NCBI GenBank assembly: GCA_023334545.1
Contig: JAADVB010000212.1
Location: 1-32,904, forward strand
From: Salisapilia sapeloensis
Lineage: Eukaryota; Oomycota; Peronosporomycetes; Peronosporales; Salisapiliaceae
Length of the DNA stretch: 32,904 nucleotides
Direction: 5' to 3'
Part shown: positions 2,853 to 20,817 of the stretch, piece after piece
Layout: every line of letters starts with the position of its first letter
How positions within the stretch are numbered: position 1 is the stretch's first letter
Notes under the pieces: generated by a model
The model's input: only the letters and a program-made list of their open reading frames with translations
Databases searched by the model: none
Told to the model about the DNA's origin: nothing
Translations under genes and position numbers: made by a program

Positions 2853-2939
2853 AACTTGCTTCACAAGGCCAACTGCCTGATCTACCCCAGACTACCAGCT
2901 TGGCCAGACAAATCTAAATTTGTCTACTCTTCACCACGC

Positions 2940-5678
2940 ATGATGCACCGAGTCCAAGTCATTGCATTCGTACTCGCGTGTGCGCTGTTGGAAATTGCGC
3001 AAGGTCAAGCGAACCTTAAGACCGATTGGGAAGCCTATGCGTCTCCACTGGTAATCCCGGAAGTCATCGACATGACCAAGGGTGGCCATGTTGACATGCA
3101 GATGGGACGTGCAGAGCACAACTGGACGTCTGACGGAGAGTTCAGTGGCATCACCTACGGTTACGGTCTCCGCAACGGCTCCGCTACCTTCCCTGGCCCG
3201 ACGTTCAAAGTCGCTCGTGGTGTCCCCATTTCCGTCACATGGTATAACGAACTCGGCGCGAAGCATCTTCTCGACGACCGTGTCGACTTGACTCTTACGA
3301 AGGAAGAGTCTGGCTGCTACCCTCGTTGCGGTGTTCCTGCCGTCGTCCACGTCCACGGACTTGAATCTGCTGCCGTGGATGATGGACTTCCCATTTCGTC
3401 GGTCTATGCGAACCAGAGTCAAACGGCTTACTATCGAAACAACCAGTCTGCTTCGACGAAGCTTTACCACGACCATGCGGCTGGTTTGTCTCGAATGAAC
3501 GGATGGGCTGGACTCCTCGGTGTCTACATCGTCGATGATCCCGACACGGAGCAGGAGTACAACGTGGATGTGGACACCGACATCCCACTCATGTTCGCCG
3601 ATCGTTTGGTAACAAACGATGGAGAGCTTCGCTACTCTGAAGACAGCTGCATCGGTCTGGAAAACGATGCGTGGGTTCCTGAATCCTTCGGTGTGGTGAA
3701 CACTGTCAACGGTGTTGTCATGCCGTACGTTGAGGTACCACCAGCGCAGACTCGCTTCCGTGTGATCAACTATGCCAACGCCCGAAACTACAACTTTTCG
3801 ATCCCGTTCGCCGACAAGTGCAAACTGATCGCCAAGGATTCTGGCCTGGTTGCTCACACCGAGCCAATCCCGAGATACCTGAACTTGTTCCCGTTCGAGC
3901 GTATCGAGATGATCTGCGACTTTAACGGTGACAAGGACGGAAAGAAATACGAGGTGACGGACATCCCGACCGTTGAACAGGACCAGCCGTATGATCCGCG
4001 CATTCTCGAAGTTCGCATTTCGGAAGACCTGCTGACTGATGACATGGTCCATCGCGAGATTCCTGACAAGCTTGTCGAGTACAAGAACTTGTCCAAGCTG
4101 TTTAATGAGCTCGGAGGTAAGAACCGAGCGCTGATGTTGGGTGAAAACGAGTACAGCTACCTGTGCCCTGAGCGCTCGATGATTGTCTACAACACGAAGG
4201 AGATCAACACGACGGACATTTGGAACACGCTTGCTTGCACGAAGGGAACGGTCGAGAAGTGGCACTTCAAGAACCCGACGGACGACCCTCACCCCTTCCA
4301 CTGGCATATTGTGAACGCTCAGTGCGGACCGACGGAAGAAGAAATTGACACGAACGGATTTAAGGACGTTGCCGTTATCCCGAATGCGAACGCCACGAAG
4401 GACAACCCGTCGGGTGTGACGCAAGTGTGCTACGTCGCCTGCACGCCACAAGAGTATCTGATTGAAGGCTCGGAGTGGGGTCCTCGGGACTACAGCTTCG
4501 ACACATCTGGTAAGTATGTTGCCCACTGTCACATCATGGAGCACGAGGACAACAGTATGATGGCCTGGTTCCGTATCACTGACCAAGACGACGGTATTCC
4601 TGACGACGATGGAACCGTGGTCGGTGGCTTCATCACTAACACGGTTATCGGTACGGCTATGGGCATGAGTGTATTGGGTGGTCTCGCCATGACGGCGTCT
4701 GTGCTGGTCATCTCCGTCGATCGCCTCAACTTCCTCGCCAGTCCGATCCCGCTTTCCATTGCCTTCGCCCTGTCCGCTGGTGTCATGGTGTTCATTTCGC
4801 TCGCCGATCTCTTTGCCGAAGGCATTGCGTTCTTCACAGCTACTTTCACGGTCGGTGGCAACCCTGACCCGGAGGCCTACGAAAAGGGTGGCTCCGTTGA
4901 CCCTGGTGTGTGTGACACGACGTGTATCGGCAATGCTTGGGCTGCCACCATCGGAAGTCTGTTCGTTGGTGTTGCGATCATTTTGGCCGTCGAGTACATT
5001 GTCCACCAGGTCATTGAGAAGAAGTATGGTGCTGGCCACGACCACGGTAACGATGGGCTTTCACCCGCTCACAGTCCGAACGCCAAGGACGCCCTGCGCT
5101 CTCCGGCGGCCTCGAACGGCTATGAAGACGATAAGGTAAAGGCGAACGACAATGAGACTGGTACCGAGGAGGATGACTCGCTCGTCGGCCAGAATGAGGA
5201 AGTCAAGAACGAATTCAAGCGTGCGGGTATGATGACGGGTGTTGCCATGGCAATCCATAACTTCCCGGAAGGTCTAGCCCTCTTCGTCTCGTCTCTCCAA
5301 GGTCTTCGCACGGGTGTTGTGCTGTCCATCGGTATCATCCTCCACAACCTGCCGGAAGGTCTGGCTGTTGCAGCGCCAGTGTACTACGCGACTGGCAGCA
5401 AGTGGGAGAGCTTCAAGTGGTCAGCCATTGCCGGTGTTGCCAACCCCATCGGTGCTGCTATCGGATGGGCTGCTATCTCCGGCGGTCTCCCGTACTGGCT
5501 TGAAGCATTCTTGTACAGTATGGTCGCTGGTATGCTCATGACGATTACGATTCAGGAGCTGCTGCCTGGTGCGTACAAGTTCGACCCGAGTGGCAAGTAC
5601 TTCCTCCCAGCGTTCTTCACCGGATTTTTAATCATTGCCCTCAGTGTGATGGCTCTGCACTACGCCGGATCTGGTTAG
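2940..5678 (+). CDS. Multicopper oxidase fused to a ZIP-family metal transporter (912 residues)
   Basis: Intronless. The start at 2940 begins a clear signal peptide (MMHRVQVIAFVLACALLEIA). Residues about 30-545 form a CotA/bilirubin-oxidase-like multicopper oxidase with every copper ligand motif: HVHG (H137, H139), YHDHA (H177, H179), HPFHWH (H451, H454, H456) and HCHIMEHEDNSMM (H529, C530, H531, H535, axial M540). From about 562 to the end there are eight hydrophobic helices of a ZIP transporter, with HNFPEG (H773-E777) in helix 4, HNLPEG (H802-E806) in helix 5, QELLP in helix 7, and a long charged loop with GHDHG between helices 3 and 4. The ZIP part looks like the ZupT/GufA branch. I infer a surface or vesicle membrane protein whose oxidase lies outside and handles the metal (iron, copper or manganese) that the ZIP part moves; substrate is not proven. 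A start at 2634 (1014 residues) is possible but would bury the signal peptide. Codons strongly favour C or G in the third position, suggesting high expression. Confidence 0.9.
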   Translation: MMHRVQVIAFVLACALLEIAQGQANLKTDWEAYASPLVIPEVIDMTKGGHVDMQMGRAEHNWTSDGEFSGITYGYGLRNGSATFPGPTFKVARGVPISVTWYNELGAKHLLDDRVDLTLTKEESGCYPRCGVPAVVHVHGLESAAVDDGLPISSVYANQSQTAYYRNNQSASTKLYHDHAAGLSRMNGWAGLLGVYIVDDPDTEQEYNVDVDTDIPLMFADRLVTNDGELRYSEDSCIGLENDAWVPESFGVVNTVNGVVMPYVEVPPAQTRFRVINYANARNYNFSIPFADKCKLIAKDSGLVAHTEPIPRYLNLFPFERIEMICDFNGDKDGKKYEVTDIPTVEQDQPYDPRILEVRISEDLLTDDMVHREIPDKLVEYKNLSKLFNELGGKNRALMLGENEYSYLCPERSMIVYNTKEINTTDIWNTLACTKGTVEKWHFKNPTDDPHPFHWHIVNAQCGPTEEEIDTNGFKDVAVIPNANATKDNPSGVTQVCYVACTPQEYLIEGSEWGPRDYSFDTSGKYVAHCHIMEHEDNSMMAWFRITDQDDGIPDDDGTVVGGFITNTVIGTAMGMSVLGGLAMTASVLVISVDRLNFLASPIPLSIAFALSAGVMVFISLADLFAEGIAFFTATFTVGGNPDPEAYEKGGSVDPGVCDTTCIGNAWAATIGSLFVGVAIILAVEYIVHQVIEKKYGAGHDHGNDGLSPAHSPNAKDALRSPAASNGYEDDKVKANDNETGTEEDDSLVGQNEEVKNEFKRAGMMTGVAMAIHNFPEGLALFVSSLQGLRTGVVLSIGIILHNLPEGLAVAAPVYYATGSKWESFKWSAIAGVANPIGAAIGWAAISGGLPYWLEAFLYSMVAGMLMTITIQELLPGAYKFDPSGKYFLPAFFTGFLIIALSVMALHYAGSG

Positions 5679-5936: not shown

Positions 5937-7373
<1,437 letters not shown>

Positions 7374-8543: not shown

Positions 8544-11500
8544 CTAAGTCGTGTCTTCCGGTTGTGCTTGCTTTCGTATCGGAGGCAATGTAGTGGATTT
8601 CTTGCGTGACTCAGCTAAGCGACGATAGAGTGACGAGTTCCTGTATGCGTTCTTTTTTATGTGGGCTTTTTTGTTCATATCTTGCTCTGAGTCGGTATGC
8701 TCAGCGTTACCTTCCACCTGTTGCTGATTGTTGCTTCCAACCATCGCTTCATCTTTGCTAGCTTCCAGATCTTTCGAGTCGTGGGGAGTACAATACACGT
8801 CGACTCGACGTCTTTGAAATTGTGCCATATCGTCTGATGTGAAGTGAGGACAATGCGTCACGTCCAGCGTTGACAACAGTTTCAATCTATCGTAGATAGC
8901 TTGAAAGCTTTGACTCGTGAGTTTCTTGCATGAAGACAAATTCAACGACTGAAGCGCTTCCGCTTGTGCTACGATACTAAGCAGCCCTTTGTCTGAGATT
9001 TTGATGCACCGCGCCAAATTGAGTTCTTCTAGCCACAAATGTTTCGCGATGGATTCCAACGCAACGTCCGTCAAGTTCCGACAAAAGCTGATATCTAGAC
9101 GGATGAGTTTAGAGCAAGTTTGGACAATATCTGCCACGTTTTCGTCTGTAAGGTAGCTACAGCCTGCCAACTTGACAGTGGTAACGTCGGTGCATTTCAT
9201 CACGACCGCCTTGATGCCGTCTGCGGACAACTGCAAACAGAAGCTCAGGTCAACAGCTTCCAAACTTATGTCTGTTGGTTTCCCACTAAGGTTGTCACAA
9301 AAGAGCCAGCGAAGTCCCTGGTCAGTCACACCGGAGCAGCGTGATATGTTGATTGACTTTAACCGACGGGCGCGATGGCCAACATGTCCGAGCAATACGT
9401 CATCAATGGATGCACCACCGGCAACGCTCAGCTCAATGATGTTTGTCAGCATCTTTCGATCAACGATATCCCGCCCATCGTTCACTTGATCGAACATAAA
9501 GCTCGTCGACGAAATTGACATGACATCTTCCGCTAACAGAGTATTAATCTTGACGCAGTTATGTGTGATGCGCTTGAGCGACTTGTCTGTCAGTTTCTCA
9601 CATTTATTGACATTAAGATGCCGTAGTTCAGGGCAATGTAGAGCTACATTTAACAAGGCAATGTCATCTAGACGTTGACATCCACTGAAATTGAGCTTTA
9701 GAAGTGTGGATGGATCCTGCATCTTCTTCAGCATTCCTTCGACACCAGTACTTCGAATCTGCACACACATCTCAACATCGAGCGTATGCAGCTTACGCAC
9801 GTACTTTGCAAGGAACAAGAGAGTATAGTCGGTGACATGTGAACAGTAAGAAAGACCAAGTTCTCGTAGCTTGGCATTGGATCGAGCTAGTGCCTCGATA
9901 CCAGTGTCTGTTAGGTTATAGCAGTGCGCTAGCCACACCCGTTGCAATTTTGTACAGACACGACCGATATATTGAAAAGCAGTGTCTCCTAGCTGATCGC
10001 AGTAAGAGAGCTCAAGCTCTTCGACATGAGACAATGATTGAAAAGCACGTCCAATCCCTTCATCAGACAATAATCGGCAGTTATTTGCTTTTAAAGACGT
10101 GCAAAACGTATTGTTGCGAGCGATTATCTCAAAATCATGGTCATTGATGTCCAATACATGTTTCAAGTCGATGCATCGAGGGTCTTCACCGCTTTCACTC
10201 GCAAGGATGAAGTAAGCGATGGCTTTTTGGTTTTGCAAGCTTCGAACCCACGAAAGATTCGTCAGCTCATCTCCATAATATGTAGGAAACACTTCTAGGA
10301 CTCTGCATACCACATCTGTAAATACATGTAGCATACTTTCTTCCGTACTCTCGATGTCATCTTTATCGTCACACTTAAGACAACCAAGTGAATAGGCTGT
10401 TTGAGAACCAAAGAAAAAATCAAGCGGCATGCGTGCGAGGTCTGGTAGACTAAGGCGACATTGATCACTTTCCGTGGCTTGAAAGTACTGTGAGTCCATT
10501 TCAAGTACACTACGATAGCAGTGGATAAACAAGTCACTAAAAGCGATGTCTCGAGGTAGACTCTTTAATATCTCAGCAATGCCATGCACGTTTTCACTCG
10601 TAAGAAGAGGTACGAGACCACATCGAACTTTTTTCTTGTACATGTTTTGCGCATACTGCTGATCCAAGTCGTACTTGAGGGATGCACAAATGTTATCTGC
10701 AAACTTGCGTAGCATAAGCTTATCGTCCGGAGCAAACGAAAGTGCTTGCTGGAAACGACTTGCTGAAAGACTAAAGAAGTAGTCAGACTCATTTGCTCGA
10801 TCGCGCGTGCCCATGACAAAGTGAGAGTTGATCTCGTCGTGACTGAGCGTGTGCCCATTGTAATACGCAACATGCGCAATGCAGCCATGAAAGAAGCGCT
10901 TACCATCTTTCCGTCGTGCTGACGATAAGCATCCTATTCTGAGCGGTCGATTGCCCTGTGTAGCTTGTTCTGCCAAATCATTTTCGATTTCCAAATTCAC
11001 TCGGTTCCTCATTTCCTCGTATTCTTTCACGACAACCTTTAGACGTTCCTCATACTCGGATCGAATTGACTGTTTTTTTGCCAGTGGCTCAAAATCTAGA
11101 TAAGATACTTTCGACAAGTCTTTCATCGTTTTTGCCTTTTGTTTGGTCTGTAGACGCGAATCCTCCGCTGCACTGGCAACACTTCCTTGGGAAAGCCGCG
11201 ATCGAAATTTGTGTTCTTCGCACAATTTTTGACTCATCGCTTTTATATTTTTCTTGCCTTCCTTTGTCACAAAGTAAGTTTGCATTTCACTTTCGACATC
11301 TTTAAAGCAAAGCGCCTTGGCATCATCCTCTAGCTGGTTAATATCGTCACGCTTCTTTTGGATCATAGCCTCTCTCTTGGCAAGTGCTTGGTCTACAACA
11401 GCATCCACTTCCAATTCATGGCAAAGATATCCATCGGCATAGAACCGCATGATCGTACCATCGAACGTTCCCACAAGGTACACCCACTTCCCAAAGACGA

Positions 11501-14500
11501 CTCGTGGTCCTTTTGCCGACAAGTCAATGTCTTTAAAACTACCGCTAAATGCCCATCGATTGCTTTTGAGAGCGCTAAGTGAATACCGACCAACGGTCAC
11601 AGCAACTCGGCGTGTGCTTTCATGACCGTCACATTTACACCATGCTTCAACAGAAACCTTTGCATCTGGTGATGTCGGGTAAAAGCGATCAATGTATTTA
11701 AATCGCACGTAGCTTCGGTTCTTCTTATCTAACTGAACAGCACGATTGAATGCCACATTGCATACAGGACCATCCGCTTCTAGCCTGCATCCAGGTAAAA
11801 AGTCTCCGATCCAATCCTTACTGTATGTACCCATATTCGCGGCAATTAGAGTTCCTCGCCGCTCACACAGTGTCCAGTAACCGGAGGGTTTATGAGAAAC
11901 AATGAGATCAGAATAAGAAGTCGCTTGCTTCACAACTGCTTGTAGCAGTAGAAGAGATGCCATGGAAAAGTGAAGCATCGAAAGATTGTGCTTAATGTGG
12001 CAGTAGTCACCATCGAGTAGGTCATCGGCTATAAACGTATAGCTGTCTGGTAAGAGGCTGAGTCTTTCCAAGCATTTGGATTGTAGCTTTATTCCAGTCA
12101 TCGATACAAGTCGGTCTATCATATACCGCATCTTAGGTACTAAAGTGCGTCGGAGACTCGGTTTCTCTACTTCGGATATCGATCTAACACCGAAACGCTG
12201 ACGGATACCAACATACATGTGCGTCGTCCAAAACCATTCACTAATGTCTCCACTTCCACAAAGCAAGTTTAGACAGTAGACAATGAGTTTTGCATGCAGA
12301 CCTGCTGTAAATCCTGCTCCGACCATCTTTGATGTGCTGCGTAGAAAGTGGCGAAGTATGTTCTTAAACGTCCGTACAGCTATCTCGGCAAGAATGAGCA
12401 GTCGAATGTCGGCTGCATGCTGCTGGCATTCAAGCCACCCGCTATAAATGTCAACATTTTGTTCCGAGTGATCTGGATGAACTCGATCTAAAGTTATACA
12501 CGTTGCATCAAATCGGTGGCGTCTACTCATACTGACTTTAAACTGCTTTCCATGGATGATGATCGGTCCACCTCGCTCTACTTCTCTCGTGAAATCATCC
12601 GTGGATGCAACTTCAGCTGTGCCATACTGAAGTGTGACTGTGCCTGTGAGTTGGAACACAAACTTGGATCGTAATAAACCAAGGTGTCGCACGTTAATAC
12701 CGTGTCGATGGAGCTCTGTTGTCAAGTAGAAGGCTTCAGAGGTAAAGTATCGCTCTTTCTGTGATAACTTGACGGCAAAATTGTGAAGGACATCACCTAG
12801 CAAATATTTCGTAGCTTTTTCCACACCTGATGCTTGCTCTTGCCAATCCGGTGTGCAATACGTCATATACGATAGTGCATCTGATGATAGTGGCTCTTCG
12901 TTCATTGCGACAAACTCCGGTCGTAGCTGTCTCCATAAAATAGACAGTCCTCTTGTCGATTGTGGTAGGTGGATGGTAAGACTCGGGTCTTCCGGTGGCA
13001 TCGCTCGAGCGAACTGAAGTAGTGCAAAACCTTTCTCTGTCGTTGCGTATCCCAACATGTCTGCAGGTCCATGGAAAACCTTGGATGTTAAATCCTGGTA
13101 ACCGCGTGCGCTGTGACGTTTTAGGTTTAGACGACCTGCAGCATCTTCTAGTATCTTGGACATCTCTTTACTCTGAGAGATCATCGTTTTACCTCTGCTA
13201 TCACTCCCGCAAAGCAACTGCTTGGTGCGTTTCTGTATTGCCGTACCAGCTTCATTCCAAGTGATGGTCTCGATCGGAAGCTTAGCCACACATAGCAGTC
13301 GGAAACCTGCATAGTCAACGGTACATTGGAGTGGGAGCAAAAGGTTTTGAACGTGGCTTAAGTGCCTGAAATATAATGCCGAGTTTCGGATCTCATGAGA
13401 CGCATACTTGGCCGCGTACTCGTCTGAATTTTCAAACCGGCCATGATCGTCGGTGCAAAATTGAAATCGAATGTTATGGCATTCATATGTATGTCGATAA
13501 GTCGATCGAACGTCATCCTTCCGTCCATCGACTTCAGAAGTGGTAGTTGGCAAGATAGATTTATCTCGAAGAGGTAGCGGGTACTCTCGAATGAGTATCA
13601 TGCCAATAGCACGCGCTGTCTCAACAAAATCATGACAGACATTCGACAGCTCCGTGTATTTCTGAGAAGCTTCTTCTGCGGTACTATCAGGTGTGCGCAA
13701 AGCGTTGTAAAAGCGCTCCGTCCATTTGACTCGATCTGCCGAGAGTATAGGATATTTAGATTGCTCTTTGAGCTGCTGCTTTTGAGTGTGCAGTAACGCA
13801 ATTTCGGCTTCCTTCCAAGCTTTCATCGCTTCCATAAGTTGTTTGTGAGTATCATCTACTTTCTTTCTCTTTTCATTAAGTTCAAAAAGATTTGCATGCT
13901 CTAGAGCAGCCATTGAATCCACTTCTTCTGTTTGCTTCTCTTCGCTTTCAATGTGTGCTGCCGCTAACACGTCTTTCTTGTATCCCATGCGAATGAGTTT
14001 CTTTTCAATCATAGTGGCATTCGCTTTCGTCTGTTCTGATGCTTGGAAAGTGACTAGATTTTGTAGTATAGAATCATTTATTTCAAGCACTCGATGCATA
14101 AGCTCTTCCGCCACTCCAAACTCCATGTCGGTAGTAAAAATACGAACAAAACCTTGTGCAAGATCCTCTGCACCACGAATAATACGGAAGTGATCGAACA
14201 AGTCTGTTTCCAATCGGTTCATGTCAAATGTCCCATCCGACTTGCGGAAAGCTTGTACATAAGTGCAAAGGTGCCGCTTTGATGGTAGCTCTTGAAGCAT
14301 CTCTTGCAGTTTTAAATCTGTCAACCCACGACACATACTCTGTAATCGGTTTTTAAAGTCAACTAAAGCAGTGTCTGTACATCCTAGACGTAACTCTGTT
14401 CCCACTTCGTCTCTTGTTAGCCCTTTACCATATGCGATGGCATCAAAGCGTCCTCTGACCATGTCATCCTGTCTCTGACGACTAGCTTCAAGTCGAATTT

Positions 14501-17500
14501 CCCGTTCCTCTTCATCGACAAAATGTAAAGAAGTTTCACGCGCAACCTTGTCATCCTCTTCCACTTCTTCCCAATGCTCTTTTGTGTCCTTGGTTTCATT
14601 TATCGCAATCATCTCTTTCATGATAGATATATCTGCTGTGGCTTCTTTGGCTTTTACGACATTATCAACAAGTTCTTTAGAAACAGTGCCTTCTAAATAG
14701 ACGAGATCGGCATGCGGTTTCTCTACCAAATCCTTATGCGTCACATAGCCGAGCGATTCCTCCATCTCTCGAAACCTATTTTCCACTTCCTTTTGCGCTT
14801 GCTGGACTGCTTCCTCCCGCATTAACGCCATGACTTCGTCTCGGCTGAACGTATTTCCCTTTGTACGTAGCTTGACCTGACGCATCCGAATCTTTGCTTC
14901 AAACCTCATCTTTTCCACCGAGTGACCGGGTTTTTCATCCTTCTCTTGCCACTCTGCCTCGATAGTGTCTCTCGCTTCTTGCAACTCTACGCCTCGAGCA
15001 TGGTAAAATGCTTGCTTTTCAGCTGCAAAACGAGCCATTTGACGCCCTCGTTTGGCTCGCCAACCTGTTTGGAGTTTGATAGCAGCACGTAGCATCATAT
15101 CCATGCGGAAGTTAATGAGATTTCTGTAGCCACCATGATCTAACGGAACGACTTTGGATAGCAAGTTGGAATGACGTTTGGGTAAGTACTTGGAATAATC
15201 TGTTTTTAGCGGGTCATTTTCACCCATGGCAAGTGCTCTTGTGTGTATGACCTCTTTCCTATACATGGAAAGCTGTTGGCGGCAATGAGCAGATTCGTAT
15301 GCGATAGCATACTGGAGATCGCTCATGTTGATTAAACCGAGTCGATAGCGATGTACCGCACTCATATGTTGGATCACGAACCGACTCAGTTGGTCATACT
15401 GCCACACGTGATGGAAGATGTCACACAAATATTTCGATTGCTCCACCGTTCCAATACAATAGCGTTCAAATTCTAAACTAGTCATACCATCGATTCGTTG
15501 TCCACTTGCATGCGCCTTCAGTTCACCAGTAGGTACACCTAGCTTTAGGAATTCACGATCAGCTAAACGTAGTAGAAACTCACGCGTGAGTCCGCGAGGC
15601 AAGTGAAGATCTTGTATACGAATGATCAAGTCCACTGCTAATCGCAATATTTCTGCAAATGCGTTTCGCGATAGAACTTGAATTGTAGTTTTACGATTGC
15701 AAAAGAGGCGAAAGACGAATTGAGTTCTTTCATGAAGGCTGTTGGCGGCGCTGCCTATGATTAATGCTATTGCGAGCTCCAACAAGGTACATCGGATTTG
15801 ACCTTCACCATTCTTAGACTTGGTTAAACAACTATAAAGCGGAAGAAATATCTGTTCTTGGTGGTAGATCGCTTCGCCTCTTTTAAGTAAAAACAGTTCT
15901 TCATCGTACATTTTGCAGATCGATTCCAATTCCTTTTCTTTCGACGTGATTTGGTCTTGCGCGAATAAAAGTTGAGACCGGTTTTTCGCGTCAGACCCTC
16001 CAATCACTTTGCTTTTGGCGTTTTGAAGAGCTACGAACTCTTCCTTTGCTATTCGAAGCGCCTGTTTTGCCTCTTCCATGTCGTGCTGTAGCTTGGACAT
16101 CTCGCTTTCGTGAAACTCGAGCCGATGACGGCCGATTGGTTCATCCACACGCCGAACACGCTTAATTTGGCCTAGTAGTTCATCACACTCCCGTTGTGCT
16201 GTTGAGATCTTTTCCTCGACTTTTTTCGTTTGCTGTTCCAACTCTTCGTCTTCTCGATCCCATTGCTCCTGCAATCGTTTGCTTTGAGCTTGAAACGTAC
16301 GAAAGAATGTGTCGTTCGGGTCAAGCTCCTTCTTTGCTCGATCGAATTCATTCTGACGTTGCTGACGCTGCTTCTGCCTTTTAGCTTCAACATCTTCTTT
16401 TCGCTCCTTTAAAATTTGTCCTTTACTCCTTTCGCTCCCGATGTTCGTCTCCATACGTTCATAATAATATTTAACTTTCTTATCAAACAGCTCATCTTCC
16501 TGTGCCTGTACTGCATCTTGAGCTTGTATCACGGTCTCCATCTCATTAGAAGCTTTCTTTAATGTGTAGCCAAAGAAGATAGGACTTCGGATCGTTGGAT
16601 CGATCGATTCAGGTAATTTTCGTTTAATCACGCGAGGCTGCTTTAATGATAAAAGATAAGGAGTTAATTCGTTTGCTTCTGCCTGTATTTCGTTTGAGGC
16701 CGACTGTGGATCAGGTATCGAACTCTCATCTATCAAACCTTCCTCTGTCTCTTTCTCCTCTGCGTCATCTGTCGCTGCTGGCTTTGTAGCAGGTATAATG
16801 TCGTCGTCTTCCTCACTCTCTTCATCAGAATCAACGATTCTCTTCTTTTGTCTGGAAGTCTGGGGATTGTTCTCTACATCTACATCTTCCTTTTCCTCTT
16901 CGTCTTCACTATCGTGTTCACTTTCATCTACGCTTGCAGCAGAGCTACTGGCACTATCGTCCGTAAAACCATCAATCTCGTGACGCTCTGGAGGTGGTAG
17001 CACAGTGTCTCCTGTACTGTATTCGTTGAACAGAGTTACTGCAGCTGGGTCCTTGTCCATTGCATATCCAGATGCTGAAGGATGCCAGCTCTTTGTCGCT
17101 GCAGCATGTGACTCCAAGTCTTCCTGCATATGAACCTGTGTTGCTGCTTTAATATAAGGAGCCCAGCAAACGATACGATGTAGATCGACACCATCAAAAG
17201 AAGCTAGTAGATGGCTTTCCATCTCCTGTACTAGTAGCTGGTGTTGTCGTAATGAAGTAGTAACTGCTTCTTTACGCTGCATGAGTTCCGTTCGAGAGAC
17301 TAGAGTCAAACGTTCATCCTCATTACCCCCCATGTGGGTGTCCAATTGTTGTAACTCGGACTCTACATGATCTAAAATGTCTATTTCTTGCTGAACAGTG
17401 AGATGCAATACATCAACCTGATCTTTGACACTTGACAAGTCGATTCGAGTCGCGAGTTCCGAAGAATTGTGGGCATCAAACTGCATATACCATCTCAACA

Positions 17501-17678
17501 TAGATGTGATCCGATCCGTACTCCAATTGAAGCAAAAAGAAAAGATCTGCTGCCGCTGCGCTACATCATTTTCCGATCGTTTCGTTTGTTCCGTACGAGG
17601 CGAATCGTAGTTGGAAATGACACCATTCATTTCTTCCTTTGTATCCTCTTCCAGAAACTTAGATATTTCACCACCCAT
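8544..17678 (-). CDS. Giant intronless protein (about 3044 residues): coiled coils, IQ motif, Clu/TIF31-like region, LamG-like region, AMN1-type leucine-rich repeats
   Basis: Start ATG 17678 (MGGEISKFLEED) is 40-50 nt below an initiator-like promoter; stop TAG at 8544. In order: an acidic Ser/Asp/Glu segment near residues 235-300; long charged coiled coils around 430-560 and again after 880; an IQ-like calmodulin site near 864 (IKLQTGWRAKRGRQMAR); a region about 1380-1670 resembling the Clu domain of TIF31/CLUH, with VDYAGFRLLCVAKLPI, ARAMPPEDP, LRPEF and the hallmark HRHGINVRHLGLLR near 1657; a concanavalin/LamG-like part about 1920-2285 (SGYWTLCERRGTLIAANMG, FGKWVYLVGTFDG, FFHGCIAHVAYYNG) split by a coiled-coil insert; then some 14 cysteine-containing leucine-rich repeats from about 2530 to 2940 (LRELGLSYCSHVTD, LNLSSCKKLTS) of the F-box/AMN1 kind. 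No F-box, signal peptide or membrane helix seen. Function unknown; size, IQ and coiled coils would suit a cytoskeletal or flagellar scaffold, which is inference. Confidence 0.85.
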   Translation of the reverse strand: MGGEISKFLEEDTKEEMNGVISNYDSPRTEQTKRSENDVAQRQQIFSFCFNWSTDRITSMLRWYMQFDAHNSSELATRIDLSSVKDQVDVLHLTVQQEIDILDHVESELQQLDTHMGGNEDERLTLVSRTELMQRKEAVTTSLRQHQLLVQEMESHLLASFDGVDLHRIVCWAPYIKAATQVHMQEDLESHAAATKSWHPSASGYAMDKDPAAVTLFNEYSTGDTVLPPPERHEIDGFTDDSASSSAASVDESEHDSEDEEEKEDVDVENNPQTSRQKKRIVDSDEESEEDDDIIPATKPAATDDAEEKETEEGLIDESSIPDPQSASNEIQAEANELTPYLLSLKQPRVIKRKLPESIDPTIRSPIFFGYTLKKASNEMETVIQAQDAVQAQEDELFDKKVKYYYERMETNIGSERSKGQILKERKEDVEAKRQKQRQQRQNEFDRAKKELDPNDTFFRTFQAQSKRLQEQWDREDEELEQQTKKVEEKISTAQRECDELLGQIKRVRRVDEPIGRHRLEFHESEMSKLQHDMEEAKQALRIAKEEFVALQNAKSKVIGGSDAKNRSQLLFAQDQITSKEKELESICKMYDEELFLLKRGEAIYHQEQIFLPLYSCLTKSKNGEGQIRCTLLELAIALIIGSAANSLHERTQFVFRLFCNRKTTIQVLSRNAFAEILRLAVDLIIRIQDLHLPRGLTREFLLRLADREFLKLGVPTGELKAHASGQRIDGMTSLEFERYCIGTVEQSKYLCDIFHHVWQYDQLSRFVIQHMSAVHRYRLGLINMSDLQYAIAYESAHCRQQLSMYRKEVIHTRALAMGENDPLKTDYSKYLPKRHSNLLSKVVPLDHGGYRNLINFRMDMMLRAAIKLQTGWRAKRGRQMARFAAEKQAFYHARGVELQEARDTIEAEWQEKDEKPGHSVEKMRFEAKIRMRQVKLRTKGNTFSRDEVMALMREEAVQQAQKEVENRFREMEESLGYVTHKDLVEKPHADLVYLEGTVSKELVDNVVKAKEATADISIMKEMIAINETKDTKEHWEEVEEDDKVARETSLHFVDEEEREIRLEASRQRQDDMVRGRFDAIAYGKGLTRDEVGTELRLGCTDTALVDFKNRLQSMCRGLTDLKLQEMLQELPSKRHLCTYVQAFRKSDGTFDMNRLETDLFDHFRIIRGAEDLAQGFVRIFTTDMEFGVAEELMHRVLEINDSILQNLVTFQASEQTKANATMIEKKLIRMGYKKDVLAAAHIESEEKQTEEVDSMAALEHANLFELNEKRKKVDDTHKQLMEAMKAWKEAEIALLHTQKQQLKEQSKYPILSADRVKWTERFYNALRTPDSTAEEASQKYTELSNVCHDFVETARAIGMILIREYPLPLRDKSILPTTTSEVDGRKDDVRSTYRHTYECHNIRFQFCTDDHGRFENSDEYAAKYASHEIRNSALYFRHLSHVQNLLLPLQCTVDYAGFRLLCVAKLPIETITWNEAGTAIQKRTKQLLCGSDSRGKTMISQSKEMSKILEDAAGRLNLKRHSARGYQDLTSKVFHGPADMLGYATTEKGFALLQFARAMPPEDPSLTIHLPQSTRGLSILWRQLRPEFVAMNEEPLSSDALSYMTYCTPDWQEQASGVEKATKYLLGDVLHNFAVKLSQKERYFTSEAFYLTTELHRHGINVRHLGLLRSKFVFQLTGTVTLQYGTAEVASTDDFTREVERGGPIIIHGKQFKVSMSRRHRFDATCITLDRVHPDHSEQNVDIYSGWLECQQHAADIRLLILAEIAVRTFKNILRHFLRSTSKMVGAGFTAGLHAKLIVYCLNLLCGSGDISEWFWTTHMYVGIRQRFGVRSISEVEKPSLRRTLVPKMRYMIDRLVSMTGIKLQSKCLERLSLLPDSYTFIADDLLDGDYCHIKHNLSMLHFSMASLLLLQAVVKQATSYSDLIVSHKPSGYWTLCERRGTLIAANMGTYSKDWIGDFLPGCRLEADGPVCNVAFNRAVQLDKKNRSYVRFKYIDRFYPTSPDAKVSVEAWCKCDGHESTRRVAVTVGRYSLSALKSNRWAFSGSFKDIDLSAKGPRVVFGKWVYLVGTFDGTIMRFYADGYLCHELEVDAVVDQALAKREAMIQKKRDDINQLEDDAKALCFKDVESEMQTYFVTKEGKKNIKAMSQKLCEEHKFRSRLSQGSVASAAEDSRLQTKQKAKTMKDLSKVSYLDFEPLAKKQSIRSEYEERLKVVVKEYEEMRNRVNLEIENDLAEQATQGNRPLRIGCLSSARRKDGKRFFHGCIAHVAYYNGHTLSHDEINSHFVMGTRDRANESDYFFSLSASRFQQALSFAPDDKLMLRKFADNICASLKYDLDQQYAQNMYKKKVRCGLVPLLTSENVHGIAEILKSLPRDIAFSDLFIHCYRSVLEMDSQYFQATESDQCRLSLPDLARMPLDFFFGSQTAYSLGCLKCDDKDDIESTEESMLHVFTDVVCRVLEVFPTYYGDELTNLSWVRSLQNQKAIAYFILASESGEDPRCIDLKHVLDINDHDFEIIARNNTFCTSLKANNCRLLSDEGIGRAFQSLSHVEELELSYCDQLGDTAFQYIGRVCTKLQRVWLAHCYNLTDTGIEALARSNAKLRELGLSYCSHVTDYTLLFLAKYVRKLHTLDVEMCVQIRSTGVEGMLKKMQDPSTLLKLNFSGCQRLDDIALLNVALHCPELRHLNVNKCEKLTDKSLKRITHNCVKINTLLAEDVMSISSTSFMFDQVNDGRDIVDRKMLTNIIELSVAGGASIDDVLLGHVGHRARRLKSINISRCSGVTDQGLRWLFCDNLSGKPTDISLEAVDLSFCLQLSADGIKAVVMKCTDVTTVKLAGCSYLTDENVADIVQTCSKLIRLDISFCRNLTDVALESIAKHLWLEELNLARCIKISDKGLLSIVAQAEALQSLNLSSCKKLTSQSFQAIYDRLKLLSTLDVTHCPHFTSDDMAQFQRRRVDVYCTPHDSKDLEASKDEAMVGSNNQQQVEGNAEHTDSEQDMNKKAHIKKNAYRNSSLYRRLAESRKKSTTLPPIRKQAQPEDTT

Positions 17679-17919: not shown

Positions 17920-20817
17920 ATGCACCGGATACAGATAACGAACCTAGAGGAGAATACCTGCATCTCCTATCCGCTCGTACTATTAGAGGGGTATATCCAT
18001 GGCATTGCTGAAAAGTTTCAAGACCAAGCTACAAACTTGTTTCTTGAGGTATCAAGTGAGAATGCCACCGCTATGTTTTGGCCGGTGGCAGTACCCTCTG
18101 GTAGATATAAAGCATATTTGCTTCTGCCTTTCGAAGGCGCACACACAATCCATTTAAAGGTTGCCGGCTTTAATGAGAGGAAATTTGATATCAGCTACAA
18201 GAAACCTGAAGCAGTTGATATCATCCGCTTCTATTACCAAAAGTGTGCAGATGCAGGCGATGATCAGGGCTTCGATGCCCCTGATAATGTCGACAACTCG
18301 GACAAGGCTGCCATTTCTAAAATTCAGTTTAACGCCTTGCTTCTGCAGACAACCATGGCAGAGCTTATGCATGCGCAGGGTCTTGGCAGATGTACTTTTG
18401 TCATGGAATTGGACGCAAACAACCTCCCTATCGTCCCTCTCCTTCGTTCCAGTTTTGACAATGCTACTGCTCGGTCTATTCACGACCAAAAGCTTATCAA
18501 TCTTGTTAAACAAGATATAGAACATTATGGATACGACAAAAACATTACCGGCCGACTTAAGCACGAAGTAATCCTCGGATGCTCCACATTTAGTCGCGAA
18601 AAGCAGGCTCCGCTTGGTCACACCGCACTCGGTGGCTCCAAGGTTGGTGTCTTTGGCTCTTGCGGCCTACACACGTGGCCTAGTCACCTTGGCGAGCTTA
18701 CGGCTTGCTGCTTGGACAATCGACAGCTGGACACGAAGCGATTCTTTGACGATAGTTGCTATCGACGTACCTTTTGGTCAAACTACTCGACTGGTATCGG
18801 AGCATTCTTTCATGAAATGGGCCACACACTTGGCCTCCGACATGCCACGGACGGCATCATGTCTCGAGGTTTTGACGACATGAATCGCATCTTTAGCATA
18901 TACGAGGCAAATCATCGTTGCAAAGACCAAGCTTACAAGTCATGGGAGGTAAATGGAAGATTGGATCTCAATATGAAGCCTTTAAAAGAAGTATTGGACT
19001 GGCGAGGCGCAGTATGGAACCTTACTTCTGCCTTGAAATTGTCCAAATCGGACTGGTTGACGCACGGCCGGAAACCTCCCAAGGCAAGTGTACCTGTTGT
19101 TCGCTGGAAACAGAATGTCTGTGGTCCCGTTGGTTTTGGCGATCAAGATGGGGAACAGCATCCTTTTGGCGAATCAGCAAATGACTTTGACGTCGGAGTG
19201 ATTAAGATCAAAGCAGGAAACTCCGTCGAAAGTATTCAGTGTTTCTCACGCGACGAGGTGAAGCGTTGGGACTGGAATACTACGTTTGAAATGAATGAAG
19301 AACACATCTTTGCTCTCTTGGAAGAAGAGTATATTCTCCAGATAAATGTTCGTGCGATGTGTTGGGTTGACGCTGTACAAATTTGTACCAACATGAGAAC
19401 AACGAGATGGTATGGTGGGTGTGGTGGTCAGCAACAAACTCTGAAAGCTGCGAATGGATGGCACATCGCTTCCTTATATGGTAGTATCGGAAACCGCTTT
19501 GTGGGGACGATAGGTGCGTACTGTCAACCTGGAAGAGTACCTCTACGCCATCCTTTTAGCAAGAGGAATGGTGACTCGACACCGGGTGCTACTTATTCTG
19601 AATGCATGGGAAAAGCACGTGGAGACGGGAATCAAACTAAATTTACGTTTAATCAATCGTGCGAGGAAGGTGCCATTGTCGTCACGTGTGATGACAGGTA
19701 TGTGAAAAAACTGAGCATGAAGAACAAACAAAAGCACATGGACAATGTGGAACGACGTGATGGATGTAAAGGCTATGGACCGAAGGAGCATGTGCTAGAC
19801 CTCGTTCCGGAGGAGTATTTGACCAAGGTGGAGGTTAGAAGCGGATTCTGGATCGACGCGCTGCGTTTCCATACGAACAAGCGAGTGACGGGTTGGATCG
19901 GAGGCAGGAATGGTTCTACGACAGCATCGCTGGTTGCACCACCAGACCATAAGATATGCGGGTTCTATGGTAGTCATGGAAACAACTTTTTAGGCAGTGT
20001 CGGTGCGTGTTTTGGTCGCAGAGCTGTCAATGCCGATCTTTCGTCTGAGTTGAAGACGGGCGCGGATAGAGATGAAGAAGGGTATGAATCCTTTTCCCTA
20101 CTGCAATCTCCAGAATCTCTTTTTACCGATAAAGGATACGGAGATGGCATCAGTAGTGTGCTTGTATCTGTAAAGGATGGAGTCATTCAACATGTTGAAT
20201 CGAATGAAAACGCAGAGGGGTCAACACCTTTCCGAGCTAATATCAATCACCAGTTCGTACTGCGTAAAGAAGAGGAGGTAATTCAGCTCGAAGGCTCAGT
20301 CAATTCAGATGGAGCTCTTATCGGATTCTGTCTTCATACGACATCCAGATGCAGCTCATGGTATGGTCAACTCGATAACAATAACCTTCGATTCTATGTC
20401 GCTCCAGAGGGTCATTGCATCTCAAGCATTTCCTCCATCGCTTCAGACGGACAACTGGTTGATATTGTAGGTACTGTTCGATCATCTCCATCACCTTTTG
20501 CACCCTTGCAAGCGATTCACCAAGGCAATCTCGACCATGGCCAACGAGATGTTCGTCTAGAAGCCACAGATTTGAATGCTGTGCTGGAGTACGCGTTCCT
20601 AATGAAAAGACGTGAACGCGAGTATCTTGACTTCCGAGCTTGGCGATGGCATCAAGTGTCGTGTCAATCTCCTCCACGTCGCTGGTGTCTACCTCACAAT
20701 CTCCTGACAAGTCATTTGGATCAAGACAAAGTAAATAGCGATGAGCTCGTTCGAAACTATGCCGTTGGCGCCATCGACTCAAATGGTTATTATGGCGAAG
20801 CAACTGGATCCAATTAA
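17920..20817 (+). CDS. Zinc metallopeptidase with three jacalin-like lectin domains (965 residues)
   Basis: Intronless. Residues about 1-100 form a beta-rich N-terminal domain beginning IQITNLEENT; the catalytic part has the zinc site HEMGHTLGLRH (H298, E299, H302, H308) followed by a methionine-turn-like DGIMSRGF. This combination matches the fungal/protist putative peptidase family that includes yeast YIL108W, which also carries a jacalin domain. From about residue 405 three jacalin-like beta-prism repeats follow: one beginning CGPVGFGDQDG and ending LYGSIGNRFVGTIGAYC, a second ending FYGSHGNNFLGSVGACF, and a third beginning GYGDGISSVLV. Sugar binding by these is plausible but the typical binding loops are not clearly conserved. 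No signal peptide is visible, so it is probably intracellular or uses another route. It ends 52 bp from the stop of the convergent Nup107 gene, so the 3' untranslated regions likely overlap. Confidence 0.8.
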   Translation: MHRIQITNLEENTCISYPLVLLEGYIHGIAEKFQDQATNLFLEVSSENATAMFWPVAVPSGRYKAYLLLPFEGAHTIHLKVAGFNERKFDISYKKPEAVDIIRFYYQKCADAGDDQGFDAPDNVDNSDKAAISKIQFNALLLQTTMAELMHAQGLGRCTFVMELDANNLPIVPLLRSSFDNATARSIHDQKLINLVKQDIEHYGYDKNITGRLKHEVILGCSTFSREKQAPLGHTALGGSKVGVFGSCGLHTWPSHLGELTACCLDNRQLDTKRFFDDSCYRRTFWSNYSTGIGAFFHEMGHTLGLRHATDGIMSRGFDDMNRIFSIYEANHRCKDQAYKSWEVNGRLDLNMKPLKEVLDWRGAVWNLTSALKLSKSDWLTHGRKPPKASVPVVRWKQNVCGPVGFGDQDGEQHPFGESANDFDVGVIKIKAGNSVESIQCFSRDEVKRWDWNTTFEMNEEHIFALLEEEYILQINVRAMCWVDAVQICTNMRTTRWYGGCGGQQQTLKAANGWHIASLYGSIGNRFVGTIGAYCQPGRVPLRHPFSKRNGDSTPGATYSECMGKARGDGNQTKFTFNQSCEEGAIVVTCDDRYVKKLSMKNKQKHMDNVERRDGCKGYGPKEHVLDLVPEEYLTKVEVRSGFWIDALRFHTNKRVTGWIGGRNGSTTASLVAPPDHKICGFYGSHGNNFLGSVGACFGRRAVNADLSSELKTGADRDEEGYESFSLLQSPESLFTDKGYGDGISSVLVSVKDGVIQHVESNENAEGSTPFRANINHQFVLRKEEEVIQLEGSVNSDGALIGFCLHTTSRCSSWYGQLDNNNLRFYVAPEGHCISSISSIASDGQLVDIVGTVRSSPSPFAPLQAIHQGNLDHGQRDVRLEATDLNAVLEYAFLMKRREREYLDFRAWRWHQVSCQSPPRRWCLPHNLLTSHLDQDKVNSDELVRNYAVGAIDSNGYYGEATGSN

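What the first reader, a model, noticed from the sequence alone, without database searches (positions are those of the whole stretch)
2940..5678. A complete multicopper oxidase fused to a ZIP metal transporter in one open frame
All ten histidines and the cysteine that bind the four copper atoms are present, and the ZIP part keeps both HNxPEG motifs and eight helices. Known high-affinity iron uptake pairs a multicopper ferroxidase with a permease of another family (Fet3/Ftr1), as two proteins. Here the permease is a ZIP, which normally moves divalent ions, so an oxidase making Fe(III) beside it is a puzzle: it may protect against, sense or limit Fe(II) or Cu(I), act on manganese, or work in export or a vesicle. 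Both halves look like bacterial-type families (CotA-like and ZupT-like). I do not know of a described system of this kind.
Basis: partly seen in the sequence, partly recalled or inferred. Interest (0 to 1): 0.85.

Follow-up and report, generated by a model that had tools for sequence, protein, structure and literature searches.

The report
Ferroxidase fused to a ZIP metal importer
An oomycete gene makes one protein that joins an enzyme that looks built to oxidise iron to a membrane importer of metals; the same joined protein is found in many oomycetes, so it may show how these fungus-like microbes handle iron at the cell surface.

Summary
Window 2940-5678 (+) is one uninterrupted 912-codon frame: secretion signal, complete multicopper oxidase (MCO), then an eight-helix ZIP transporter. 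It is not an assembly accident. The same genome has a second copy (83% identical; dN/dS 0.09-0.16 in oxidase, junction and ZIP helices), and 77 of 99 homologues found list both a Cu-oxidase and a ZIP domain; those with organism names come from ten oomycete genera. The MCO half has the CotA fold but carries acidic residues that LPR1-type ferroxidases need and CotA lacks (two of three by alignment; a conserved Asp is a candidate for the third). The ZIP half has the BbZIP fold and an intact M1 transport site, but the M2 glutamate of ZupT-like ZIPs (107 of 108) is replaced, by Gln in 72 of 75 fusions. No FTR1 permease was found in this genome; ferric-reductase-type, NRAMP and VIT matches were. Best reading: a single-chain ferroxidase-permease at an oomycete membrane, doing the job that Fet3 and Ftr1 do as two proteins, with a ZIP in Ftr1's place. 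That the ferroxidase hands iron to the ZIP is inference. Ten literature searches (capped listings) showed no description of it.

The parts
2940..5678 (+). whole coding frame of the MCO-ZIP fusion, 912 aa plus stop
2940..3011 (+). predicted secretion signal (about codons 1-24; boundary is my estimate)
   Evidence: hydrophobic segment 1-26; helix 2-21; similar N-termini in relatives shown
3012..4586 (+). multicopper oxidase, about codons 25-549, CotA fold
3348..3476 (+). T2/T3 copper ligands HVHG (H137, H139) and HDH (H177, H179)
3681..3683 (+). E248, equivalent of LPR1 E269; E in 75 of 75 fusions; Ala in CotA
3993..3995 (+). D352, conserved linker Asp (73 D, 2 E of 75), candidate for LPR1 D370; equivalence not established
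4284..4307 (+). D449 (equivalent of LPR1 D462; 71 D, 2 E, 2 gaps of 75; Gly in CotA) and copper ligands H451, H454, H456
4524..4559 (+). HCHIMEHEDNSM: H529, C530, H531, H535 and axial M540
4587..4637 (+). junction, codons 550-566, before the first ZIP helix at codon 567; continuous in relatives
4638..5675 (+). ZIP transporter, eight helices, codons 567-912, BbZIP fold
4806..4808 (+). D623, TM2; D in 75 of 75 fusions, E in 97 of 108 ZupT-like ZIPs (6 Q, 4 D, 1 V); at the pore-entrance position by spacing to BbZIP S106 (my count)
5040..5195 (+). TM3-TM4 loop, codons 701-752, mostly low model confidence, poorly conserved (median 17% identity)
5256..5273 (+). TM4 HNFPEG, M1 ligands H773 and E777
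5343..5360 (+). TM5 HNLPEG, M1 ligands H802 and E806
5442..5444 (+). N835, TM6, at the place of the BbZIP M2 ligand E240; Q in 72 of 75 fusions (1 N, 1 L, 1 gap), E in 107 of 108 ZupT-like ZIPs

Best explanation
A single-chain ferroxidase-permease. The signal peptide puts the oxidase on the extracellular (or lumenal) face, held by the ZIP's first helix at the mouth of the ZIP. Fe(II), supplied for instance by ferric reductases, binds at E248/D449 beside the type 1 copper, is oxidised, and the electrons go to O2 at the trinuclear cluster. The tether exists so that iron (or the gating effect of its oxidation) passes directly to the ZIP, which moves metal into the cytosol by the ZIP elevator mechanism. 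It would thus work like Fet3-Ftr1 with a ZIP in Ftr1's place. Shown here: one chain, both active sites intact, purifying selection, conservation in ten oomycete genera, no FTR1 found in this genome. Inferred: Fe(II) as substrate (likely), surface location (likely), iron as the ZIP's cargo and direct hand-off (uncertain).
For: LPR1 ferroxidase needs the triad E269/D370/D462, which CotA lacks (PMC9168544, passages read). The equivalents of E269 and D462 are conserved in the fusions and are Ala and Gly in CotA; the Asp-x-His spacing to the T1 copper ligand (D449, H451) equals LPR1's (D462, H464). ZIP M1 transport site intact. No FTR1 in the 19.5-Mb genome at E 0.001 or at E 10, while 4 of 14 (prokaryotic) control genomes ring; 8 chaperonin loci, 9 FAD_binding_8 matches, NRAMP matches on 2 contigs and 1 VIT match were found. 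dN/dS 0.09-0.16 in MCO, junction and ZIP helices. Both halves show the same deep split, and the ZIP halves form one clade. MCO-only oomycete paralogues exist, but the eight separate ZIP-bearing pieces I looked at (P0102-P0109) look like fragments of fusions. Fet3 channels Fe(III) to Ftr1 (PMC11817551, passages), so a lasting 1:1 tether is what hand-off would select. ZIPs are proposed iron permeases in a fungus without Ftr1 (PMC4585334, passages).
Against: ZIPs are known for divalent ions, and the oxidase product is Fe(III). Loss of the M2 glutamate removes a negative charge, the opposite of what a trivalent cargo would suggest. The LPR1 motifs are not fully met: motif 1 has Ser where the paper's pattern has Tyr, Ala or Phe, and motif 2 is absent with a shorter linker. 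The two-acid signature is common in bacterial CotA/LPR1 relatives (E in 65, D in 68 of 80), so it is not proof of ferroxidase activity. In the Ftr1-less fungus that uses ZIPs the authors think that an MCO plays no significant part in iron uptake. No activity, localisation or expression data. FTR1 absence was tested in this assembly only, whose completeness is not known exactly.
Confidence: 0.45

Rival explanations
1. Iron-excluding or iron-gated importer. The ZIP carries Zn(II), Mn(II) or other divalent ions; the ferroxidase removes Fe(II) at its mouth, or its Fe(II)/Cu state acts as a sensor domain, so that toxic ferrous iron is not co-imported.
For: M1 site is ZupT-like and suits divalent ions; loss of the M2 Glu (Q in 72 of 75) leaves two acidic M1 side chains, matching one divalent ion (charge compensation in PMC11549095, passages). 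Fixed residue at the pore-entrance position, D in 75 of 75.
Against: By my rough estimate from recalled diffusion constants, diffusive supply of Fe(II) far exceeds an MCO's turnover, so one tethered oxidase could not deplete it locally; only a gating version survives this.
Confidence: 0.25
2. The oxidase half is not a ferroxidase in vivo but a Cu(I), Mn(II) or phenol oxidase anchored by the ZIP; the fusion serves placement only.
For: Fold is CotA's; MCOs are promiscuous; members of the family occur with other tails (Ser/Thr/Gly-rich in P0081-P0083, a hydrophobic C-terminus in P0085, seen by eye).
Against: Acidic residues kept where laccase CotA has Ala and Gly; no Met-rich run as in CueO (no M-x(1,2)-M-x(1,2)-M in codons 25-549).
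Confidence: 0.2
3. Endomembrane metal release: the protein sits in a vacuole or secretory vesicle, the oxidase acts in the lumen and the ZIP exports metal to the cytosol.
For: Signal peptide plus ZIP topology fit any secretory membrane.
Against: None found either way; I did not look for retention or vacuolar signals.
Confidence: 0.1

Closest known systems
Arabidopsis LPR1 and bacterial LPR1-type ferroxidases (PMC9168544, passages)
   Same: CotA-like MCO; equivalents of E269 and D462; Asp two residues before a T1 His
   Different: no transporter fusion is mentioned in the passages read; here the linker holding D370 is shorter, motif 2 is absent and motif 1 differs at one position
Bacillus CotA laccase (1gsk)
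   Different: CotA has Ala and Gly at the two acidic positions; soluble; no ZIP
ZupT and BbZIP (ZIP family, PF02535)
   Different: M2 Glu replaced by Gln or Asn; TM2 Glu to Asp; below NCBIfam's ZupT cut-off; carries an N-terminal MCO
Fet3-Ftr1 high-affinity iron uptake (PMC11817551, passages)
   Same: ferroxidase on the outer face beside a permease
   Different: one chain instead of two; the permease is a ZIP, not FTR1; the ferroxidase is of the CotA/LPR1 type, not Fet3's
Drosophila Mco4 (PMC12218971, abstract and passages)
   Same: iron-import ferroxidase without a known Ftr1 partner
   Different: Fet3-type MCO; its permease is not identified

Membership tests
Multicopper oxidase | ten His and one Cys in four motifs | tested here: met
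LPR1-type ferroxidase | acidic residue at E269 position | tested here: met
   E248, E in 75 of 75; surrounding motif 1 differs at one position (Ser)
LPR1-type ferroxidase | acidic residue at D462 position, motif NXTX[DEG]XHP | tested here: met
   NPTDDPHP; D or E in 73 of 75, 2 gaps
LPR1-type ferroxidase | acidic residue at D370 position in motif 2 | tested here: inconclusive
   motif 2 absent, linker shorter; D352 conserved but not shown equivalent
LPR1-type ferroxidase | ferroxidase activity | not testable with these tools
   needs enzyme assay
ZIP transporter (PF02535) | Pfam score over cut-off, eight helices, HNxPEG motifs | tested here: met
   106.1 vs 35.1 bits
ZIP transporter (PF02535) | M1 transport-site ligands | tested here: met
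   H773, E777, H802, E806; 74 or 75 of 75, the rest a gap
ZupT equivalog | NCBIfam NF003243 cut-off | tested here: not met
   165.3 vs 252 bits
ZupT equivalog | TM6 Glu of the M2 site (107 of 108 ZupT-like ZIPs) | tested here: not met
   N835; 72 Q, 1 N, 1 L, 1 gap of 75 fusions
CotA laccase | CotA fold and copper sites | tested here: met
CotA laccase | laccase/bilirubin oxidase activity | not testable with these tools
   needs assay
Fet3-Ftr1 system | FTR1-family permease | tested here: not met
   the permease half is a ZIP; no FTR1 match in the genome
Fet3-Ftr1 system | channelling of iron from oxidase to permease | not testable with these tools
   needs uptake kinetics with chelators

The most novel reading that the evidence does not exclude
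Oomycetes lost or never had FTR1 and instead run high-affinity iron uptake through one polypeptide in which an LPR1-type ferroxidase hands its iron straight to a ZIP: a ZIP that accepts iron from a ferroxidase, with a re-tuned metal path (M2 Glu to Gln, entrance Glu to Asp) that arose with the fusion.
Probability: 0.3. Interest if true: 0.9.

Novelty: new variant of a known kind. Interest (0 to 1): 0.68.

Why it matters
The ferroxidase-permease systems I know of are two proteins, and which permease partners a ferroxidase is open in some lineages (in Drosophila, Mco4's permease is unidentified; PMC12218971, passages). A natural fusion kept across a whole group is strong evidence of functional coupling between a ferroxidase-type MCO and a ZIP. 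It makes iron acquisition in oomycetes testable with one gene, and the fixed residue changes in the ZIP's metal path say where to look for altered selectivity.

Tried and rejected
Assembly or annotation artefact: rejected (second copy; 72 of 74 relatives continuous over the junction). Degenerate oxidase: rejected (ligands; fold; dN/dS). Bacterial operon precursor: a ZIP HMM found no ZIP gene in 80 bacterial or archaeal MCO loci (none even at E 10), and single-sequence searches with three other ZIP frames of this genome found none either. One scan pattern already demanded the Asp, so the count of D in 68 of 80 is biased upwards. Viral origin: one viral-contig scan matched one pattern stretch, which was no relative. 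The antisense 458-aa frame at 2931-4307 (-) has the look of a shadow frame of this gene; I did not test it. VIA-align rows for the whole model covered only the oxidase, so I folded the ZIP alone. Trees: fusions are not one clean clade in the MCO tree; nine MCO-only proteins (P0088, P0089, P0086, P0085, P0087, P0219, P0081-P0083) fall inside, which I read as losses of the ZIP or old duplicates; the root is at the midpoint, several branches are long, and finer placements (for example of the Albugo protein P0061) differ between the two trees. First counts of the ZIP sites took 110 'ZupT-like' proteins, two of which (P0108, P0109) are pieces of fusions; the recount on 108 is and is used here. In the signal peptide and the TM3-TM4 loop dS was saturated, so those two dN/dS values mean nothing. 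Papers: ten searches, of which bear on a fusion or on oomycete or fungal iron and copper-oxidase genes; none of the titles or abstract starts listed describes an MCO-ZIP fusion. One search held no paper; some searches listed only the top 20, 15, 12 and 15 of 58, 151, 52 and 33; I did not read most listed papers, and subscription journals are mostly missing. No oomycete proteome other than this genome could be searched for FTR1.

Full report

IT IS NOT AN ACCIDENT. The genome that holds the window (19.5 Mb, 452 contigs) has a second full-length copy on contig C271, 83% identical. Nei-Gojobori rates between the two (own script) give dN/dS 0.109 overall with dS 0.96; 0.092 in the oxidase, 0.159 in the 21 junction codons, 0.097 and 0.104 in the two helical parts of the ZIP; dS is saturated in the signal peptide and the TM3-TM4 loop. 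A search of 5.8 billion proteins returned 99 homologues; 77 of 99 list both a Cu-oxidase and a ZIP domain (74 near full length: P0002-P0075; plus the shorter P0076, P0079, P0084). All of these that carry an organism name are oomycetes: Phytophthora, Nothophytophthora, Pythium, Globisporangium, Lagenidium, Albugo, Aphanomyces, Achlya, Thraustotheca and Saprolegnia. The search scored only the 7994 candidates sharing most words, so the count is a lower bound. The stretch 540-580 is covered with at most four gaps in 72 of 74.

OXIDASE HALF. All ten His, the Cys and the axial Met are conserved in 75 fusions, the only exceptions being alignment gaps. The LPR1 paper (PMC9168544, passages read) shows that the plant ferroxidase needs an acidic triad E269/D370/D462, and that CotA lacks it. 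In the alignment to CotA, E248 faces Ala and D449 faces Gly. In 75 fusions position 248 is E in 75; position 449 is D in 71, E in 2, gap in 2; the linker residue 352 is D in 73 and E in 2. D449 stands two residues before the copper ligand H451, as D462 stands before H464 in LPR1. Against: the paper's motif 1 pattern is missed at one position (Ser), motif 2 is absent and the linker is shorter, so the equivalence of D352 and D370 is not shown. On D370 the paper is mixed: it calls this acid expendable for high-affinity binding, yet the D370A form had about fourfold lower affinity and complemented poorly in plants. The two-acid signature is also common among bacterial relatives (E in 65 and D in 68 of 80 GTDB loci, the latter biased by a scan pattern). 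I read the half as LPR1-type ferroxidase with good but not conclusive support.

ZIP HALF. Both HNxPEG motifs and the four M1 ligands are intact (74 or 75 of 75; of the BbZIP M1 ligands H177 and E211 come from the paper, E181 and Q207 are recalled). In BbZIP M1 is the transport site; disruption of M2 (N178, D208, E240) only modestly lowers zinc transport, though simulations in the same paper suggest that M2 metal helps release (PMC11549095, passages). At the E240 position 107 of 108 ZupT-like ZIPs have Glu; of 75 fusions 72 have Gln, 1 Asn (this window; the second copy also has Asn), 1 Leu, 1 gap. In TM2, position 623 is Asp in 75 of 75 fusions; the 108 ZupT-like ZIPs have 97 Glu, 6 Gln, 4 Asp, 1 Val. 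By spacing from the G-x-M motif it matches BbZIP S106, which the ZIP8 paper (PMC10372143, passages and section 11) places at the pore-entrance selectivity filter; the assignment by counting is mine, and the HMMER stretch behind it is not significant by itself.

HISTORY. A tree of the ZIP halves puts all 30 sampled fusions in one clade (100/100), together with P0108 and P0109, which are themselves pieces of such proteins. The MCO and ZIP trees both split the family into the Saprolegnia/Achlya/Aphanomyces side and the Phytophthora/Pythium/Albugo side, which fits one fusion before that split (oomycete phylogeny recalled); finer branchings differ. MCO-only proteins fall outside the family (P0218, P0220-P0226, P0090-P0093) and inside it (P0088, P0089, P0086, P0085, P0087, P0219, P0081-P0083). 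The eight separate ZIP-bearing pieces inspected (P0102-P0109) begin in the oxidase or its last residues, inside TM1, or later, and look like fragments. So the oxidase seems to have been kept repeatedly without the ZIP, while I found no clear case of the ZIP kept without the oxidase. No ZIP gene was found in 80 bacterial MCO loci, with the limits told under Tried and rejected.

GENOME CONTEXT. FTR1 (PF03239) is not found in this genome at E 0.001 or at E 10, while the same search rings in 4 of 14 control genomes, all prokaryotic. Eight chaperonin (PF00118) loci suggest a fairly complete assembly (the expected number, nine, is recalled). Present: nine FAD_binding_8 matches, as in ferric reductases and NADPH oxidases (the prokaryotic controls ring in 0 of 14), NRAMP matches on two contigs, one VIT match, Ctr matches at two places of one contig (controls 0 of 14), ZIP matches on five other contigs, and one more, unlike MCO on contig C149. 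Neighbouring genes in the window have no evident link to metals, apart from metallopeptidases.

HOW IT LIKELY WORKS. Signal peptide, eight N-glycosylation sequons in the oxidase and the outward N-terminus of ZIPs (recalled) put the oxidase outside or in a lumen, at the mouth of an importer. A permanent 1:1 tether would make sense for hand-off or gating; by my rough estimate from recalled diffusion constants, it would not make sense for depleting Fe(II) locally, because diffusive supply far exceeds MCO turnover. Fet3 channels Fe(III) to Ftr1 (PMC11817551, passages), so I rank a Fet3-Ftr1-like hand-off first (0.45). The main objection is chemical: ZIPs carry divalent ions, and the family has lost an acidic ligand, which leaves two acidic M1 side chains, a match for one divalent ion. 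An Fe-gated Zn/Mn importer is therefore a serious rival (0.25).

WHAT IS KNOWN. Ten searches of a 5.39-million-paper library, seven of them bearing on this, showed no paper that describes an MCO-ZIP fusion, as far as the listed titles and abstract starts go. Relevant context: Paracoccidioides lacks Ftr1 and is proposed to use ZIPs as iron permeases with ferric reductases, but its authors think that an MCO plays no significant part there (PMC4585334, passages). Drosophila has a ferroxidase for iron import whose permease is unknown (PMC12218971, abstract and passages). [quoted passage not shown] Diatoms, other stramenopiles, keep FET- and FTR-like genes (PMC4460010, passages). Database entries already carry automatic names such as 'FtsP/CotA-like multicopper oxidase with cupredoxin domain/zinc transporter ZupT', so the sequences are public while the system appears undescribed.

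I recounted the ZIP sites without two fusion fragments, searched the bacterial flanks again with other ZIP queries, and repeated the FTR1 search at E 10. The odds did not need changing.

Noticed in passing
window 8544-17678 (-): A 3044-codon frame without stops carrying CLU, Laminin_G_3, eIF3_p135 and LRR domains; very long single frame with an odd domain mix.
   Followed up: partly
window 17920-20817 (+): Putative metallopeptidase (PF12044) fused to Jacalin-like lectin domains.
   Followed up: no
window 5937-7373 (-): Peptidase_M24 gene (5937-6668) with a Lys-rich frame upstream (6822-7373); probably a methionine aminopeptidase split by an intron, a guess from memory of the family.
   Followed up: no
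G000 contig C149 (L014): A third, unlike MCO in the same genome with an N-terminal hydrophobic stretch and an HCH motif (by eye) and no ZIP in the frame read.
   Followed up: partly
proteins P0081, P0082, P0083: Phytophthora and unnamed MCOs of this family in which the ZIP is replaced by a long Ser/Thr/Gly-rich tail.
   Followed up: partly
proteins P0071 and P0086: In Aphanomyces stellatus a fusion and an MCO-only paralogue bear consecutive gene numbers (1224, 1225) on contigs listed with the same length, and are sisters in the tree: probably a recent loss of the ZIP.
   Followed up: no
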